Shown one piece after another: positions 1 to 8,052 of a stretch of 64,000 nucleotides of DNA; position 1 is the first letter of the stretch; every line of letters begins with the position of its first letter. The translations under genes and the position numbers were made by a program. Origin of the DNA: Sulfurovum sp. (GTDB taxonomy: Bacteria; Campylobacterota; Campylobacteria; Campylobacterales; Sulfurovaceae); NCBI GenBank assembly GCA_027068435.1, contig JAMOTA010000050.1:1-64000 (forward strand), in the 5' to 3' direction. The notes beneath the pieces are model-generated. The model was not told the DNA's origin. It saw only the letters and a program-made list of their open reading frames with translations, and ran no database searches.

Positions 1-1212
1 ATTTGGAAGTGATTGTCTCATATAGGACGCAGTTAGTCCATATTGGCTCCTATGGGCTTCATCTATAAGAACAAATATATTTTCTTTATCACTTAGGACT
101 TCAATCTCTTTTTTCTCTTCAGCTCTCTCTTGAAACTTTTGGATAGTAGAAGTGAGTGTTTTACCATAGCTATCTTTGAGTAGTGTCTTTAAGTGTGTGA
201 TAGAGTTTGCTTGATTTATATTTGAAAAACCAACACGATTAAAGGTGCTTCTAATTTGATTATCTAAATCTGTTCTATCTGTTAAAATCAAAATAGTAGG
301 ATTATCAAATCCACTTGTAGCAGCTCTTAACTTGGAAGCCAGATAAATCATAGTAATAGATTTACCACTTCCTTGTGTATGCCAAACTACACCACCACGG
401 TTTTCATTTTTAAGTCTATCAACTATTTTATTTACAGCACGAAGTTGTTGGTATCTTGGTAGTTTCTTGATGACTTTACCCTCAACAACTTCAAAAATCA
501 CAAAGTATTTTATGATGTCAAGAAATCTTCTCTTCTCAAATAGGTTATAGATTAAAATATCTTGTGGTGTTGGCTCATCTTCACACAACTCTATAAGCTC
601 CCCAGTCGCTTTTTCATTGTATTTTGAGTAGAACTTCATTGATGCTTCTATTGTTCCATATAAACCAGATATACGATTAATAGCACCTATGATTTGGTTA
701 TAGTGAAATAGTTTTGGCGAATTGGTTTGATAGTAGTCTAAATCTGGAATATCACTTATATCTATGGTTTGATTTTTGGCTTCTATAACAGCAAGTGGAA
801 GACCATTTACAAACACAACTAAATCAGGAATAGAGTTAGCCCTTTGACCTTTGAACTTCATCTGATTTACTACAAGAAACTCATTGTTTTCTATCGTTTC
901 ATAATCTATAAATCTTACAGCTTTTGGGTGTTCTTCTGGTGTAGGTTTGAGTGATAGAGCATCCGCCTTTGTTATTAGCTTATGGATTTCAGAGTTTATC
1001 TCCATAAGCGAGCTTCCACTTACTGCCAATATCTTTCTACTTACTTTTTGTATGTTGTTTTCACTTAGCCAAGGGTTGATTTTCTTTAATGAAGTTGTTA
1101 GTCTATCTTCAAGAACAACTTTATACATTTCGCCTTTGGCATCAAAGTAATCATATCCAAGCTTTTGAAATAGCTCTATTGCTGGTAGTTCTGATTGTAG
1201 GTATTCACTCAT
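1..1212 (-). CDS. hsdR: Type I restriction enzyme R subunit (HsdR), N-terminal part, cut by the window edge
   Basis: Reading the minus strand from an ATG at 1212 gives 404 open codons up to the edge, beginning MSEYLQSELP. The N-terminal nuclease core is visible: D130 in SIPDLVVF, then E144 and K146 in VIEAK, the PD-(D/E)xK pattern of HsdR. The helicase motor starts with Walker A HTQGSGKS (278-285) and motif II DEAH (384-387). Known role: the R subunit translocates DNA with ATP and cleaves when bound to HsdM/HsdS on unmethylated sites. It is the last gene of the minus-strand operon, 17 nt after the PIN-domain gene. The C-terminal half lies outside the window, so its integrity cannot be judged. 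Confidence 0.93.
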   Translation of the reverse strand, partial: MSEYLQSELPAIELFQKLGYDYFDAKGEMYKVVLEDRLTTSLKKINPWLSENNIQKVSRKILAVSGSSLMEINSEIHKLITKADALSLKPTPEEHPKAVRFIDYETIENNEFLVVNQMKFKGQRANSIPDLVVFVNGLPLAVIEAKNQTIDISDIPDLDYYQTNSPKLFHYNQIIGAINRISGLYGTIEASMKFYSKYNEKATGELIELCEDEPTPQDILIYNLFEKRRFLDIIKYFVIFEVVEGKVIKKLPRYQQLRAVNKIVDRLKNENRGGVVWHTQGSGKSITMIYLASKLRAATSGFDNPTILILTDRTDLDNQIRSTFNRVGFSNINQANSITHLKTLLKDSYGKTLTSTIQKFQERAEEKKEIEVLSDKENIFVLIDEAHRSQYGLTASYMRQSLPN

Positions 1213-1229: not shown

Positions 1230-1766
1230 TTATAGATACCACTTAGTATTTATACCATCATAGTTATCAAAATCTTTATCATCAGATAATAATTTTAAGT
1301 TTTGATTTAATACAGTTCTTGATATAACTAAATCATTAAAGTCCAATTCATCAGATTTTTCAAACTCTGAGATAGTTTCAAATTTAGAAAAGTCATCATC
1401 TAATTGTTGTATCTTAAATACATTTAGCATCTTGTGTAATAATTTTAATAGTATATTTAATGTTTGTTTATATTCAGAACTTCCTCTATAATCATTCTTA
1501 TAATGTTTAGACTTATTATCATCTTGAAAATTTTTATCAAAATCAATTCTTAAACATCTATTCAAGAACTCTGATACGACAAGAGAATTAATATACATAT
1601 TATTTTGTTTTTCAACAAGCATTTCAAATATTTTAGAATAAGTATCTACTTGATATTCATTTGAAGATACAAAATCAGGAGAAAATAAAAAAATTAAAAT
1701 ATTTGTATCCAAAAATACATTATCATTCTTATTAATTTTATAGGCACTTGAAAAGTCTATACTCAT
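1230..1766 (-). CDS. PIN-domain protein (putative ribonuclease) embedded in the type I R-M operon
   Basis: This 178-residue protein has the acidic pattern of PIN nucleases: D20 in FLDTNIL, E66 in VVSEF, D142 and D145 in LDFNDLVIS, and D162/D163/D165 in LLSDDKDF. PIN domains are Mg2+-dependent RNases, often VapC-like toxins. Its ATG overlaps the stop of the upstream STAS-like gene by 4 nt, so translation is probably coupled, and no small DNA-binding antitoxin is present. The region is strikingly AT-rich. The fold is well supported by motifs. A toxin or defence-effector role is inferred from context, and the substrate is unknown. Confidence 0.75.
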   Translation of the reverse strand: MSIDFSSAYKINKNDNVFLDTNILIFLFSPDFVSSNEYQVDTYSKIFEMLVEKQNNMYINSLVVSEFLNRCLRIDFDKNFQDDNKSKHYKNDYRGSSEYKQTLNILLKLLHKMLNVFKIQQLDDDFSKFETISEFEKSDELDFNDLVISRTVLNQNLKLLSDDKDFDNYDGINTKWYL

Positions 1767-2110
1767 TTTAGTATATCCTTTTGTATTCTCTCGCTATTTT
1801 TTTCATCTGAGAAATGGCTTTTTGATGTTGGTATTACTTTTGTTAATAATAATTCTTTATCGTCAGAACTTAACCCACTAAAAGACACACCTTTATCTAA
1901 CATATCCCAATCTTTTTTATGGAAAATTTTATAAAGCTTTCCAACACCCTCATTTAAGAAATGAGATATTATCATATCAATACCTTCAAAAGAAACTTCT
2001 ACACTATTGCCATCTCTTATTTCTTTTACAATAACATTATTTAGCTTCTTGCCATCATCTGTTGAGATACCTATACTCTTTCCTATTACATCTAATACAC
2101 TAATCTTCAT
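1763..2110 (-). CDS. STAS-like (DUF4325-type) small protein
   Basis: The 115-residue product resembles STAS-like DUF4325 proteins: a short N-terminal segment, then a strand-helix pattern with VEVSFEGIDMIISHFLNEGV and GKLYKIF at about 35-65. This matches the 'conserved small residues then FLN..G.LY' pattern I associate with that family. The family often sits beside GHKL-type ATPases and is thought to act like anti-sigma-factor antagonists. Here it overlaps the ATPase gene upstream by 11 nt and the PIN gene downstream by 4 nt. The C-terminal 40 residues are charged and may be flexible. Its role as a phospho-switch partner is inference. Confidence 0.6.
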   Translation of the reverse strand: MKISVLDVIGKSIGISTDDGKKLNNVIVKEIRDGNSVEVSFEGIDMIISHFLNEGVGKLYKIFHKKDWDMLDKGVSFSGLSSDDKELLLTKVIPTSKSHFSDEKNSERIQKDILK

Positions 2111-3005
2111 TTTTTTCTCCTACTAAATAAAAATATTTATTTATATCTGTATCCAATCCTATACTGATAATCGTCCCATCAAAAGAACTACTTAATATAT
2201 TTCCACCTACTTCATTATTTCTTATAAAATAATATCCATCATTTGAAACTATATCTAAAACACCATTACTTTTAAGAATTAAATCTCTTAATAAACTTAA
2301 TCCTAATCCGCCCTCACCAGTAGTTGAATGTTTCTCTTCCATAGACCACTTTATTGCTTCAAGACCACTCTTATTTTCAAACTTTTTTGTTCCAAATATT
2401 TTATCTCCTAATGTTTTCTTTTTATTAAATTTATTTTTGAAATATTTATTTACATTATTTTTAATAGTTATACCACCATCAACAATAGTAAAATAAAACT
2501 TATCATTACTTGGATAAAATTGACCAGAACAAAATAAACCCAATTCGCTTTCACTATGTCTAAATACATTAGAAAATAATTCAAATATTTTCTGTATTAT
2601 TTTATTAGATAATTCAGGAGATAAGTTTTGGACTTTTCTTTCAAGTTGCTGCTTAAAATACATATAAAATTCAGCAAGTGCTTGGTCATAATTTTCAAGT
2701 GGTATATGAGTATATTTTACCATTGTATTATTATTGTCAATACCAATACTATCATCTGAAAATCTTGATAAAAATCCTATTCTTTTTATAGAATTTTTAA
2801 CTGTTGTTGCTAATGGTGGAATAATCTTAATCTCTTTACCATCTTTTTTTTGTAATTCAAGTGCTAAACCAAGTATTGACAAATAGTTATTTCTAATAAA
2901 TGAAGCATTAGAAAAATCTAAGCTAATTATGTCTTCATCACACTCCATAATATCTTGATAAAATTTTACAGCATCAGCTAATCTATCAATTTTTCTTATT
3001 TTCAT
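2100..3005 (-). CDS. GHKL (histidine-kinase-like) ATPase with N-terminal STAS-like domain
   Basis: The 301-residue protein has two parts. Residues about 20-80 read like a STAS domain (DIISLDFSNASFIRNNYLSI, then a helix and IKIIPP). Residues about 130-290 carry GHKL boxes: N-box E142, N146 and H150, the VDGG motif at 175-178, and the G-rich lid GEGGLGLSLL at 230-239. There is no dimerisation/phosphoacceptor domain, so it is closer to an anti-sigma/SpoIIAB-type kinase than to a sensor kinase. It starts 3 nt after the hsdS stop and overlaps the DUF4325 gene, which points to one operon. Such an ATPase could phosphorylate the STAS-like partner, but no target is shown. Confidence 0.72.
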   Translation of the reverse strand: MKIRKIDRLADAVKFYQDIMECDEDIISLDFSNASFIRNNYLSILGLALELQKKDGKEIKIIPPLATTVKNSIKRIGFLSRFSDDSIGIDNNNTMVKYTHIPLENYDQALAEFYMYFKQQLERKVQNLSPELSNKIIQKIFELFSNVFRHSESELGLFCSGQFYPSNDKFYFTIVDGGITIKNNVNKYFKNKFNKKKTLGDKIFGTKKFENKSGLEAIKWSMEEKHSTTGEGGLGLSLLRDLILKSNGVLDIVSNDGYYFIRNNEVGGNILSSSFDGTIISIGLDTDINKYFYLVGEKNED

Positions 3006-3008
3006 CTT

Positions 3009-4238
3009 CTAAACCCTAACCTCTCCACTCAAAAGCTTCTGTAATAAACCTTTTTTAAGTATTTCATAGTTCTCTTTTTTAGCACGAAGCACTTCTAACT
3101 TTTCATCAGCAGTTGATAATATTTCGGCTATTTGTTTTTGTTCTTCAAGTGGTGGAAGTGGAATTTTGATTTTTTTGAAAATATTAAAAGATATAGACTT
3201 TCTTCTTTCAACACTACCTAATCCTATATGTTCATAAATTTTTATCATTTTATGAGACTTTACTAATGAATAAAAATAACTTCTATCAACTCTTTTATAA
3301 TCAATTTCAAATACTGAATACATAGGACTTAAAACTGCTATATCAAATATATCAAGAAAACCTACTGAACCTTCATCTAAATGAATGGTGGCATAGGCAA
3401 ATTGATTTCGTTCAATAATTTTATATGTAGTAATATTATCACTAAATACTTTTTTATTAAAGTATTCTAATGAATTAACTATTCCATCATATTTTGTTAC
3501 AGATACAACATCAGTTATTACATTGTCTTTATTTTTTTTACTTATTGATTTTGAAAAACTTCCAAGCTCAACAACCTCCCAACTCTCAGGTATTTTCCCA
3601 AGCTCACTATCCTTAAACTCACTATGTCCTATACCCTCACTTAGTAGCTTTTGTAGTAGCCCTTTTTTAAGTGTTTCAGCTTTTTGAATTTGTGAAGCAA
3701 TAGCATCTATCTTTTCATCAGCAGCTGAGAGAATATCAGCTATTTTTTCTTGTTCTTTTAGTGGTGGGAGTGGGATTTTAATATTTGAAAAATCTGTTTT
3801 ATTTATCATCAATACAGCAGTCTGTCCAGCTAATCCAATTATTTTACTTGTATTGTTTTCAAACCAATAATATACATATTCTGATATATGATTATTTGAT
3901 GGTAAAATAGCATTTATTTGTTGATTACAAGAACCTTGTTTTTTTAATATAGCATTTTTACCTATACTCGCTATTGATGTAATTAAAACAGTGTCTTGTG
4001 GCAATTGTCGTGCTTTGGAATAACCTTGACTTGATAAACTTCTTGCTCCGATAAATATATTCTTTTTACTTCCTATATCCGTAGGTGTAATCCAAGGATA
4101 TTCAGCTCCATAATTATTTATATCCTTTGTTGGTGGTGTATTCCCAGTAGCAATTATTGAAAAATCTTTTATTTGTTTAACTTCCCAATCCTCAGGAATA
4201 ACCCCAATCTCAGTTTCTTTATAACCCTCTGCGACCAT
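3009..4238 (-). CDS. hsdS: Type I restriction-modification specificity subunit HsdS
   Basis: 409 residues with the two-half HsdS architecture. Each half opens with an IP(E)xWEV element (residues 14-20 and about 216-222), continues as a variable target-recognition domain (about 21-155 and 223-358) and ends in a conserved helix: residues 156-200 and 360-404, both PLPPL(K/E)EQ...LKKGLLQKLLS. HsdS recognises a bipartite DNA site and holds HsdM and HsdR together. The start lies 1 nt beyond the hsdM stop. The near-duplicate conserved blocks could support domain shuffling. The recognition sequence cannot be read from the protein alone. Confidence 0.95.
   Translation of the reverse strand: MVAEGYKETEIGVIPEDWEVKQIKDFSIIATGNTPPTKDINNYGAEYPWITPTDIGSKKNIFIGARSLSSQGYSKARQLPQDTVLITSIASIGKNAILKKQGSCNQQINAILPSNNHISEYVYYWFENNTSKIIGLAGQTAVLMINKTDFSNIKIPLPPLKEQEKIADILSAADEKIDAIASQIQKAETLKKGLLQKLLSEGIGHSEFKDSELGKIPESWEVVELGSFSKSISKKNKDNVITDVVSVTKYDGIVNSLEYFNKKVFSDNITTYKIIERNQFAYATIHLDEGSVGFLDIFDIAVLSPMYSVFEIDYKRVDRSYFYSLVKSHKMIKIYEHIGLGSVERRKSISFNIFKKIKIPLPPLEEQKQIAEILSTADEKLEVLRAKKENYEILKKGLLQKLLSGEVRV
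3027..3161 (-). repeat. hsdS: HsdS internal direct repeat, distal copy
   Basis: This 135-bp block encodes the C-terminal conserved helix (residues 360-404) and is an imperfect direct repeat of 3639-3773 about 610 bp away. Shared stretches include the DNA for LKKGLLQKLLS and for the PLPPL-EQ element. Such repeats flank HsdS recognition domains and are known substrates for recombination that swaps specificities. Confidence 0.7.
3639..3773 (-). repeat. hsdS: HsdS internal direct repeat, central copy
   Basis: This 135-bp block encodes the central conserved helix (residues 156-200) that separates the two target-recognition domains. It matches the distal copy at 3027-3161 with many synonymous and some amino-acid differences, so it looks like an old duplication kept by protein symmetry rather than a recent repeat. 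Confidence 0.7.
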
Positions 4239-4239
4239 C

Positions 4240-5787
4240 TTAAAAACCTAAACTTGTAAGATAATCATTTAGCTTTTTATCTATCTCTTGCTCTTTTGTT
4301 TCAAGCTCTTTTATCTCAACTCTGACAGCTTTTATATCTATGATAATTTCATCTTCACTTGTATCAATGTATCGTGAGATATTAAGGTTGTAGTCATTAT
4401 CAACTATCTCACTCATATCTACAACTCTCATAAACTTATCTATCGTTTCAAGCCCATCATACCCATCAACTATTTTTTTGATATTTTCTTGTGTCAGAGT
4501 GTTTTGGTTTTTACCGTCTTTATATTCACTTGAAGCATCTATAAATACTACTTTGTTTTTTAAATTATCTGCTTTGCTTTTATTGATTATGATTATACTT
4601 GCTGGTATGCCCGTGTTATAAAAGAGCTTCTCAGGAAGTCCAACTATCGCTTCTACTATGTCATCGTTTAACAAGCCTTGACGGATTTTCCCCTCAGTGC
4701 CACCACGAAATAATATTCCGTGAGGAAGAACAACACCCATACGACCATCATTTTTAAGAACACTTACCATATGCTGAACAAATGCTAAATCTCCATAACC
4801 CCTTGGTGGTATGCCATACTTAAATCTTCCATACTCATCTGAGACTACACTATTATATTTTGGTGCTATCTCTTTGCCATTTTCATCTGTTTTTATATCT
4901 ATCTCTGCTGGATGCCACCACTTTTTAAGTGAAAAAGGTGGATTTGCTATAACTCTATCGTAAGTCATAAGTTCGCCATTTTCTAAGTGTTTTGGAGAAG
5001 AAAGAGTATCGCCTTTTCGTATATCACTATCTTTGAAGTTATGAACAATCATATTGATTTTACATATAGCCCAAGTTCCAAGGTTTTTCTCTTGACCATA
5101 AAGTTTGGCATCTACATACTTACCAACAACTCCACCATTTGCTTTGATATGGTTAGCACTTTGAATGAGCATACCACCACTTCCACAAGTAGGGTCATAG
5201 ATACTATTTCCTGCTTCTGGTTTGATAAGATTGACCACAAGATTAACTACCTCTTTTGGAGTGTAAAACTCTCCACCTTTTTTTCCACCATCATCAGCAA
5301 ACTCACGGATTAGATACTCGTAAGCACTTCCAAGAATATCTGGATTGTCTAAGTGTTCATTAGCAAGAGAGAATTTATTGAAGTGTTGTAGAAGTCGTGC
5401 TAAAAGTTCATCAGGAAGTTTCTCAGTGTCTCCAAAATGAACAGCAGTCATAACACCTTCAAGTTGAGGATTGTTTTCTTCTATAAGAGAAAAAGCTTTA
5501 TCAAGAGCTTGACCAATGTTCTCAGTCTTTTTAGTTAGCTCAGACCAATAGGCATCAGTAGGAATAAAAAATTGGTGGTAGTCTTCATCAAGAAGTGCTT
5601 CTTCTAAACTTACACTATCTTCACTAACAGAGATATTTGCTTCTTCAACAAATTGGTCATTGGCTCTCTTTAAAAAGAGTAGTCCAAATATGTAGTTCTT
5701 AAAATCAGAACTATCAATATGCCCTCTCATCAAATCAGCACTATCCCATAGCCATCTCTCTAATGTTTCAAGTGTAAGTTTGTTCAT
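4240..5787 (-). CDS. hsdM: Type I restriction-modification methyltransferase subunit HsdM
   Basis: 515 residues, full length for HsdM. The N-terminal helical HsdM_N domain (about 5-150, with WLWDSADLMRG) is followed by an N6-adenine methyltransferase: SAM motif I DPTCGSGGM (198-206) and catalytic motif IV NPPF (282-285). A coiled C-terminal tail (about 470-515) probably packs against HsdS. It methylates adenine at the site chosen by HsdS and also forms part of the restriction complex. It is the first gene of the minus-strand operon, with a -10-like box close upstream and a tight junction to hsdS. Confidence 0.96.
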   Translation of the reverse strand: MNKLTLETLERWLWDSADLMRGHIDSSDFKNYIFGLLFLKRANDQFVEEANISVSEDSVSLEEALLDEDYHQFFIPTDAYWSELTKKTENIGQALDKAFSLIEENNPQLEGVMTAVHFGDTEKLPDELLARLLQHFNKFSLANEHLDNPDILGSAYEYLIREFADDGGKKGGEFYTPKEVVNLVVNLIKPEAGNSIYDPTCGSGGMLIQSANHIKANGGVVGKYVDAKLYGQEKNLGTWAICKINMIVHNFKDSDIRKGDTLSSPKHLENGELMTYDRVIANPPFSLKKWWHPAEIDIKTDENGKEIAPKYNSVVSDEYGRFKYGIPPRGYGDLAFVQHMVSVLKNDGRMGVVLPHGILFRGGTEGKIRQGLLNDDIVEAIVGLPEKLFYNTGIPASIIIINKSKADNLKNKVVFIDASSEYKDGKNQNTLTQENIKKIVDGYDGLETIDKFMRVVDMSEIVDNDYNLNISRYIDTSEDEIIIDIKAVRVEIKELETKEQEIDKKLNDYLTSLGF

Positions 5788-7336: not shown

Positions 7337-8052
7337 TGGCAGAGAAAAAGACATTAGTATATGAGGGTAAAGCAAAGAAAATTTGGTCAACAGATAATGA
7401 CGATCTTTATATCTCAGAATTTAAAGATGACTTAACCGCTTTTAACGGTGAGAAAAAATCAAGTGAAGAGGGAAAAGGTGCATTAAACAATAAAATTTCT
7501 ACTGAACTTTTTAAATACCTTAATGAAAAAGGTATCCCTACTCATTTTGTAGAGATGATGGACGATAACCACATGCTTCATAAAAAAGCAGAAGTTATTT
7601 ACATAGAAGTGATAGTAAGAAACATCGCTACAGGTTCTTTAAGTAGAAACCTTGGTATCAAAGATAAAACAGTTTTACCTTTTACTTTAGTAGAGTTTGA
7701 CTATAAAAACGATGAGTTAGGTGACCCTAAACTTAATGATCAACACTGTCTTATCTTAAACTTAGTAAAAGATACTTCAGAACTTGAATACATAAGATTT
7801 ATGGCACGTAGAATCAATACGATTTTAACAGACTTCTATGCAGAGCTTGACATTACAGTAGTTGACTTTAAATTAGAGTTTGGTAGAGATAGCAATGGAA
7901 ACATTATTCTTATTGATGAGTTAAGTCCAGATAACTTTAGACTTTGGGACTCAAAAACAAATGAGAAACTAGATAAAGACCGTTTTAGAGAAGGTTTAGG
8001 TGGGCTTACTGAAGCTTACAGAGTAGTACTAGACAGAATCATAAATAGATAA
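7333..8052 (+). CDS. purC: Phosphoribosylaminoimidazole-succinocarboxamide synthase
   Basis: 239 residues, standard length for the bacterial enzyme, which joins CAIR and aspartate using ATP in de novo purine synthesis. Recognisable features are the N-terminal YEGKAKKIW motif, the [12 protein letters not shown] strand and the C-terminal [14 protein letters not shown] signature. Two tandem ATG codons exist at 7333 and 7336. The first overlaps the ctpA stop, so translation is likely coupled. Two further purine genes follow. Confidence 0.96.

What the first reader, a model, noticed from the sequence alone, without database searches (positions are those of the whole stretch)
1230..3005. Three-gene ATPase / STAS-like / PIN cassette inside a type I R-M operon
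Between hsdS and hsdR lie a GHKL ATPase with a STAS-like N-terminus, a DUF4325-type STAS-like protein and a PIN nuclease. Overlaps of 11 and 4 nt point to coupled translation, and the cassette is visibly AT-richer than hsdM. GHKL ATPase plus STAS partners resemble partner-switching modules (SpoIIAB/SpoIIAA). Here the output could be a PIN RNase instead of a sigma factor, held off until restriction fails or a phage modifies DNA. I know of no described system with this exact arrangement, but I could not search for one.
Basis: partly seen in the sequence, partly recalled or inferred. Interest (0 to 1): 0.78.

Follow-up and report, generated by a model that had tools for sequence, protein, structure and literature searches.

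The report
VapKSC toxin system inside restriction operon
Three genes lodged inside a bacterial DNA-restriction operon form a recently described phage-defence module (VapKSC), a kinase that frees an RNA-cutting toxin when DNA is damaged, and comparison with relatives shows that this module has repeatedly settled between the 'mark' and 'cut' genes of restriction systems.

Summary
Between hsdS and hsdR lie a STAS-GHKL kinase (301 aa), a DUF4325 STAS-like protein (115 aa) and a PIN protein (178 aa), with 11- and 4-nt overlaps and clearly AT-richer DNA. Profiles of the STAS-like and PIN proteins find the crystal structure of Escherichia VapS and VapC (9Z7O) as their only strong PDB hits (1e-20, 2e-9). 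The phospho-acceptor Ser/Thr, PIN acidic residues and GHKL motifs are conserved across 74-81 relatives. The order kinase-STAS-PIN holds in nearly all loci of many bacterial phyla, archaea and IMG/VR contigs. The proposed mechanism (partner switching with a PIN RNase as output) matches the published one in outline. The proposed trigger (failed restriction) is untested; the published trigger is ssDNA from DNA damage. Not found in that paper's text: VapKSC repeatedly sits inside R-M operons, between mod and res (Type III) or hsdS and hsdR (Type I; four separate lineages lie beside Type I genes). In two relatives with the same hsd lineage that slot is empty or holds a BrnT toxin-antitoxin pair: VapKSC is cargo.

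The parts
2100..3005 (-). vapK: 301-aa kinase, N-terminal STAS domain (about 1-85) plus GHKL/anti-sigma-type ATPase domain (about 92-288); N-box E142/N146, H150, G1 D176/G178, G2 G232-G235; aromatic F36 in the STAS domain at the column that is W in most relatives
   Evidence: Pfam HATPase_c; fold pLDDT 92, pTM 0.90; SpoIIAB Z 10.8, STAS Z 9.1; conservation
1763..2110 (-). vapS: 115-aa STAS-like (DUF4325) antitoxin with C-terminal helix (82-114); S49 aligns with phospho-acceptor Ser48 of Escherichia VapS
   Evidence: Pfam DUF4325; PDB 9z7o_A VapS E=1.1e-20 by profile, 0.0044 alone; S/T in 79 of 81 rows, both exceptions from PIN-less sister pairs; fold
1230..1766 (-). vapC: 178-aa PIN-domain RNase toxin; catalytic acidic residues D20, E66, D142/D145, D163
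   Evidence: Pfam PIN; PDB 9z7o_C VapC E=2.4e-9 by profile, 6e-5 alone; D20, E66, D145, D163 in 74/74
3009..4238 (-). hsdS, upstream host gene of the slot
   Evidence: Pfam Methylase_S, PADLOC Specificity_I
4240..5787 (-). hsdM
   Evidence: Pfam N6_Mtase, PADLOC MTase_I
1..1212 (-). hsdR, first 404 aa only: the contig of the assembly begins here
   Evidence: PADLOC REase_I; contig edge; no matching remainder in the assembly

Best explanation
The trio is a VapKSC toxin-antitoxin defence module carried as cargo in the hsdS-hsdR slot of a type I R-M operon. VapS (STAS-like) binds the PIN RNase VapC and keeps it inactive, its C-terminal helix reaching the active site. VapK (STAS + GHKL kinase of the SpoIIAB type) is switched on by a DNA-damage signal, probably ssDNA made when phage DNA is cut or replicates; it phosphorylates VapS on S49, VapS lets go, and VapC cleaves RNA and stops growth. 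Being packed into the R-M operon and probably co-transcribed with it, it would act as a second line: ends made by restriction, or damage from a phage that escapes restriction, supply the trigger. Shown by others for the Escherichia homologue: VapC toxicity, antitoxin action of VapS and of its C-terminus, loss of binding in a phospho-mimic, about 2 logs of phage protection needing VapC D28, VapS S48 and VapK F54. Shown here: homology, conserved key residues, operon anatomy, recurrence. Inferred: that this copy works the same way, that ssDNA is the trigger, and any functional coupling to the R-M enzyme.
For: Only strong PDB hits are Escherichia VapS/VapC 9Z7O. Key residues conserved: VapS S49 position S/T 79/81, VapC D20 74/74, VapK E142/N146 76/76. 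Kinase fold closest to SpoIIAB/RsbW, N-terminal domain STAS; VapS fold STAS. Gene order K-S-C conserved in 65 non-duplicate genome loci and most IMG/VR loci. Published mechanism. Slot: same hsd lineage empty in L124 (HsdM 80%, HsdR 75% identical) and holding BrnT plus a CopG-type antitoxin in L125.
Against: No experiment on this copy. The window proteins are distant from the Escherichia ones (single-sequence E-values only 0.0044 and 6e-5). hsdR is cut by the contig end, so an intact R-M enzyme is not shown.
Confidence: 0.9

Rival explanations
1. R-M guard in the manner of PrrC: VapKSC is physically or functionally tied to the R-M enzyme and is released when the enzyme is inhibited or alleviated.
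For: Same position as prrC/rlo genes (papers); repeated embedding between modification and restriction genes of type I and type III systems; tight packing and short overlaps.
Against: Many VapKSC loci have no R-M gene beside them (41 of 65 have none on the same strand within 1.5 kb); the Escherichia copy protected when expressed as a vapKSC operon; VapK already carries a sensor domain.
Confidence: 0.15
2. Selfish addiction cargo: a toxin-antitoxin module that merely stabilises the R-M operon it sits in, with no role in sensing phage.
For: The slot holds other TA-type modules in relatives (BrnT/CopG, a VapC-like PIN, HipA-like); sporadic distribution in Campylobacterota (10 of 298 genomes with any match).
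Against: A dedicated, strictly conserved kinase is not needed for simple addiction; published phage protection needs VapK, VapS Ser48 and VapC catalysis.
Confidence: 0.12
3. A sigma-factor or transcriptional partner-switching module (SpoIIAB/SpoIIAA, CapK/CapS) with an unrelated PIN gene beside it.
For: Kinase fold nearest to SpoIIAB/RsbW.
Against: The PIN gene is present in the same place in nearly all relatives; VapS lacks the wHTH of CapS (115 aa; fold shows STAS plus one C-terminal helix); direct homology to the crystallised VapS-VapC complex.
Confidence: 0.03

Closest known systems
VapKSC (Chambers et al., EMBO J 2026, PMC13373217; PDB 9Z7O)
   Same: Three genes in the same order, same domains (STAS-GHKL kinase, STAS + C-terminal helix, PIN), conserved Ser/Thr and PIN residues, direct sequence homology.
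   Different: Window proteins are distant and form a Campylobacterota clade; the kinase has an insert of about 20 aa between the G1 and G2 boxes; embedded between hsdS and hsdR, an arrangement I did not find described in the paper's main text.
CapK/CapS (same paper)
   Same: GHKL kinase with STAS domain and STAS substrate.
   Different: CapK has an N-terminal HTH and CapS a wHTH; output is transcription of the next operon, not a PIN toxin.
PrrC in EcoprrI and rlo genes of Campylobacter jejuni hsd loci (PMC2610378, PMC12707154, PMC5183652)
   Same: RNase or other cargo gene inside a type I operon; rlo genes lie between hsdS and hsdR.
   Different: PrrC/RloC are ABC-ATPase anticodon nucleases; no STAS partner and no kinase.
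SpoIIAB/SpoIIAA, RsbW/RsbV
   Same: Kinase fold (Z about 10-11) and STAS substrate fold.
   Different: Output is a sigma factor; no nuclease.

Membership tests
VapKSC | Three-gene operon, kinase - STAS protein - PIN protein | tested here: met
   Window coordinates and overlaps; same order in 65 genome loci
VapKSC | VapC homologous to Escherichia VapC with PIN catalytic residues (Asp28) | tested here: met
   9z7o_C E=6e-5 alone, 2.4e-9 by profile; D20 aligned with the DTN motif Asp; D20/E66/D145/D163 invariant
VapKSC | VapS homologous to Escherichia VapS with conserved Ser/Thr (Ser48) | tested here: met
   9z7o_A E=1.1e-20 by profile, 0.0044 alone; S49 in register, S/T in 79/81
VapKSC | VapS C-terminal helix that inhibits VapC | tested here: met
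   Helix 82-114 in the predicted fold, the last 15 residues at lower confidence; presence only, inhibition not testable
VapKSC | VapK = STAS + GHKL kinase without N-terminal HTH | tested here: met
   Fold and matches; protein starts directly with the STAS domain
VapKSC | Aromatic ssDNA-binding residue of VapK (F54; W68 in CapK) | tested here: inconclusive
   F36 lies in a column that is W 63, F 9, Y 1, but the Escherichia VapK sequence could not be fetched to fix the register
VapKSC | Phage protection, VapC toxicity, VapK-dependent phosphorylation | not testable with these tools
   Needs bench work
CapK/CapS | HTH on the kinase and wHTH on the STAS protein | tested here: not met
   Protein lengths and folds show neither
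PrrC/RloC | ABC-ATPase plus anticodon nuclease triad | tested here: not met
   Pfam finds HATPase_c, DUF4325 and PIN instead
Anti-sigma partner switch (SpoIIAB/RsbW) | Sigma factor as output partner | tested here: not met
   Third gene of the operon is a PIN nuclease in the window and relatives

The most novel reading that the evidence does not exclude
VapKSC is a general guard or back-up module of restriction-modification systems: it has been captured many times independently between the modification and restriction genes (mod-K-S-C-res in type III, hsdS-K-S-C-hsdR in type I), so that DNA ends and ssDNA made by the host R-M enzyme, or its inhibition by phage, are the natural trigger of VapK, a PrrC-like logic built from partner-switching parts.
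Probability: 0.35. Interest if true: 0.65.

Novelty: new member of a known kind. Interest (0 to 1): 0.42.

Why it matters
It places a just-described defence module in Campylobacterota and many other phyla and archaea, and shows a recurrent architecture, M-VapKSC-R, that makes a testable prediction: that restriction itself produces the signal that arms the RNase. It also adds one more instance of the hsdS-hsdR junction as an exchangeable cargo slot for toxin-type genes.

Tried and rejected
PADLOC and NCBIfam give no name for the trio, so library silence alone would have suggested novelty. Word searches for DUF4325 in papers gave nothing useful; the paper was found by searching STAS + GHKL + PIN + anti-phage. 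DefensePredictor's PIN systems DS-3 and DS-5 are different by description. I suspected an AAA ATPase as a recurrent fourth gene from one natural fusion (L031); clustering showed that the recurrent upstream gene is a type III Mod instead. Foldseek gave no E below 0.001 for either model; the VIA second look was clearer; 9Z7O was not in those listings. I looked for the rest of hsdR: the only other hit in the assembly (C7) is a different HsdR, so integrity stays open. Attempts to fetch the Escherichia VapK sequence failed.

Full report
What is there. On the minus strand the window holds hsdM, hsdS, a 301-aa ATPase, a 115-aa DUF4325 protein, a 178-aa PIN protein and the first 404 aa of hsdR, which is cut by the contig end. 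GC falls from 34.9% in hsdM to 22-28% in the three genes.

Is it a module? A search of 298 Campylobacterota genomes with the ATPase gave ten genomes with a hit, the window's own among them; five others carry the trio in the same order (the PIN gene broken in one and the kinase by a stop in another), in unrelated places such as next to a metal-efflux locus or between his and flagellar genes. One scan of the GTDB genome collection with the ATPase alignment gave 70 loci; own profiles for the three families found the order ATPase-STAS-PIN in almost all of them, in Bacteroidota, Planctomycetota, Poribacteria, Chloroflexota, Nitrospirota, Proteobacteria, Cloacimonadota and two archaea, and in most of 12 IMG/VR loci. 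After removal of duplicates 65 genome loci hold all three genes. So the trio is a real, widely and patchily spread unit and does not depend on a type I operon. The search was seeded with kinases from trio loci, which favours such loci, but nothing in it forced the STAS and PIN genes to follow.

What it is. The trio is VapKSC. Chambers et al. (EMBO J, June 2026, PMC13373217) describe a three-gene operon with a CapK-like STAS-GHKL kinase (VapK), a STAS antitoxin (VapS) and a VapC-like PIN toxin, 289 cases, 36% of them within 10 kb of another immune gene; VapC is toxic, VapS neutralises it through its C-terminus, the S48E phospho-mimic releases VapC, and the Escherichia operon gives about 2 logs of protection against one phage, lost on mutation of VapC D28, VapS S48 or VapK F54. 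Membership was tested by sequence: the profile of the STAS-like proteins hits Escherichia VapS (9z7o_A) at 1.1e-20 and that of the PIN proteins hits VapC (9z7o_C) at 2.4e-9, with no other strong hit among all PDB sequences; the window's proteins alone give 0.0044 and 6e-5.

Key residues. In the alignments S49 of the window VapS lies on the published Ser48; 79 of 81 rows have Ser or Thr there, and the two exceptions come from PIN-less sister pairs. VapC D20, E66, D145 and D163 are invariant in 74 rows; VapK E142, N146, H150, G178, G233 and G235 are invariant in 76. F36 of VapK sits in a column that is W in 63 rows and F in 9, the likely equivalent of CapK W68/VapK F54, but the register could not be fixed, and the neighbouring column is also mostly aromatic.

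Folds. AlphaFold2 models of the window VapK (pLDDT 92, pTM 0.90) and VapS (pLDDT 90, pTM 0.80) used alignments of 31 and 37 sequences. The kinase domain matches SpoIIAB and RsbW best (Z 10.8, 130 residues, 2.7 A) and residues 1-85 match STAS domains (Z 9.1). VapS residues 1-97 match STAS domains, among them RsbV and SpoIIAA, with modest Z (6.4, 5.8), in a list that also holds unrelated folds at similar Z. Residues 82-114 form one long C-terminal helix, the last part at lower confidence.

Mechanism. By homology: VapS holds VapC; VapK senses DNA damage, probably ssDNA; VapK phosphorylates S49; VapC is freed and cuts RNA. Its trigger, failing restriction or phage DNA modification, is not tested by anything here.

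The R-M setting. In a set of relatives the gene directly upstream of vapK is a type III mod (66-76% identical to one another's reference copy; usually a 4-nt ATGA overlap with vapK) and the gene directly downstream of vapC is a type III res (Pfam ResIII, PADLOC REase_III). Of 65 loci, 24 have an R-M gene or a fragment of one on the same strand within 1.5 kb, and 12 have them on both sides within 2.5 kb. The labels at L017, L039 and L044 rest on short fragments of 61-103 aa, so about 21 rest on longer genes; on the other hand many contigs are short and only a few R-M profiles were used, so cases may have been missed. L020 has a far more distant mod/res pair around the trio. Type I neighbours occur in the window, L041 (hsdM-hsdS-x-KSC-hsdR, its hsdR only a 126-aa N-terminal piece), L057 (hsdM-hsdS-KSC) and L050 (hsdS-hsdR-x-KS, contig ends). 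On a VapK tree these four need four separate changes, forced by starred branches; type III needs at least four. The labels are clustered on the tree, so part of the type III group is shared descent. I did not find this intercalated arrangement in the parts of Chambers et al. that I read; they note R-M genes next to capKS (88 of 443) and suggest that restriction products could activate CapK; their supplementary lists could not be read here.

The slot. In a genome of the same genus (L124) HsdM is 80% and the matching part of HsdR 75% identical to the window's, and hsdS runs straight into hsdR (ATGA overlap): an empty site. In another genome of the family (L125; HsdM 88% and HsdR 78% over the parts compared) the same junction holds a BrnT toxin with a CopG-type antitoxin. 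Other hsd loci in the family hold a VapC-like PIN, a HipA-like kinase, KilA-N, DUF3800 or a DEAD helicase there. This is the rlo slot known from Campylobacter jejuni, and prrC is likewise embedded in the EcoprrI type I locus. VapKSC is cargo in a known exchangeable slot; its low GC fits acquisition from elsewhere.

Verdict. Real, well conserved, and already described as a system since June 2026. New here: this Campylobacterota member, its place in the hsd slot with empty and differently filled sites in close relatives, and the recurrent M-VapKSC-R architecture, whose functional meaning is open.

Noticed in passing
L008-L011 (Campylobacterota): A sister pair: GHKL ATPase of about 277-293 aa next to a 98-102 aa DUF4325 protein on the opposite strand (L009-L011; no DUF4325 ORF was found in L008), without a PIN gene; in L011 it sits beside the same metal-efflux genes that flank VapKSC in L012, suggesting a shared insertion spot.
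   Followed up: partly
L031:3-2885 (Desulfobacterales): VapK fused behind an N-terminal region of about 670 aa with a P-loop (weak AAA_22/AAA_16 match): a possible alternative sensor for the kinase.
   Followed up: partly
L039:5762-5962 and 7763-7993; L017, L044: Short remnants of type III mod and res directly flanking the trio, as if the R-M genes decayed or were lost while VapKSC stayed.
   Followed up: no
L030, L033, L037, L059 downstream of vapC: A 460-470 aa AAA ATPase (PADLOC PDC-M47A / PD-T4-4_A match in L030) plus an ORF of about 190 aa follows VapKSC in several Poribacteria and one Caldilineaceae: stacked defence genes.
   Followed up: partly
L004:1486-2370 and 2497-2826: A vapK with an in-frame TAG, so probably a pseudogene, and a second DUF4325-like gene upstream.
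   Followed up: no
G000:C7 end (L123:2385-4391): A second, different type I HsdR, cut by the contig end, in the same genome as the window.
   Followed up: partly
L082-L090, L093 (IMG/VR contigs): VapKSC is also carried on predicted viral or proviral contigs.
   Followed up: no
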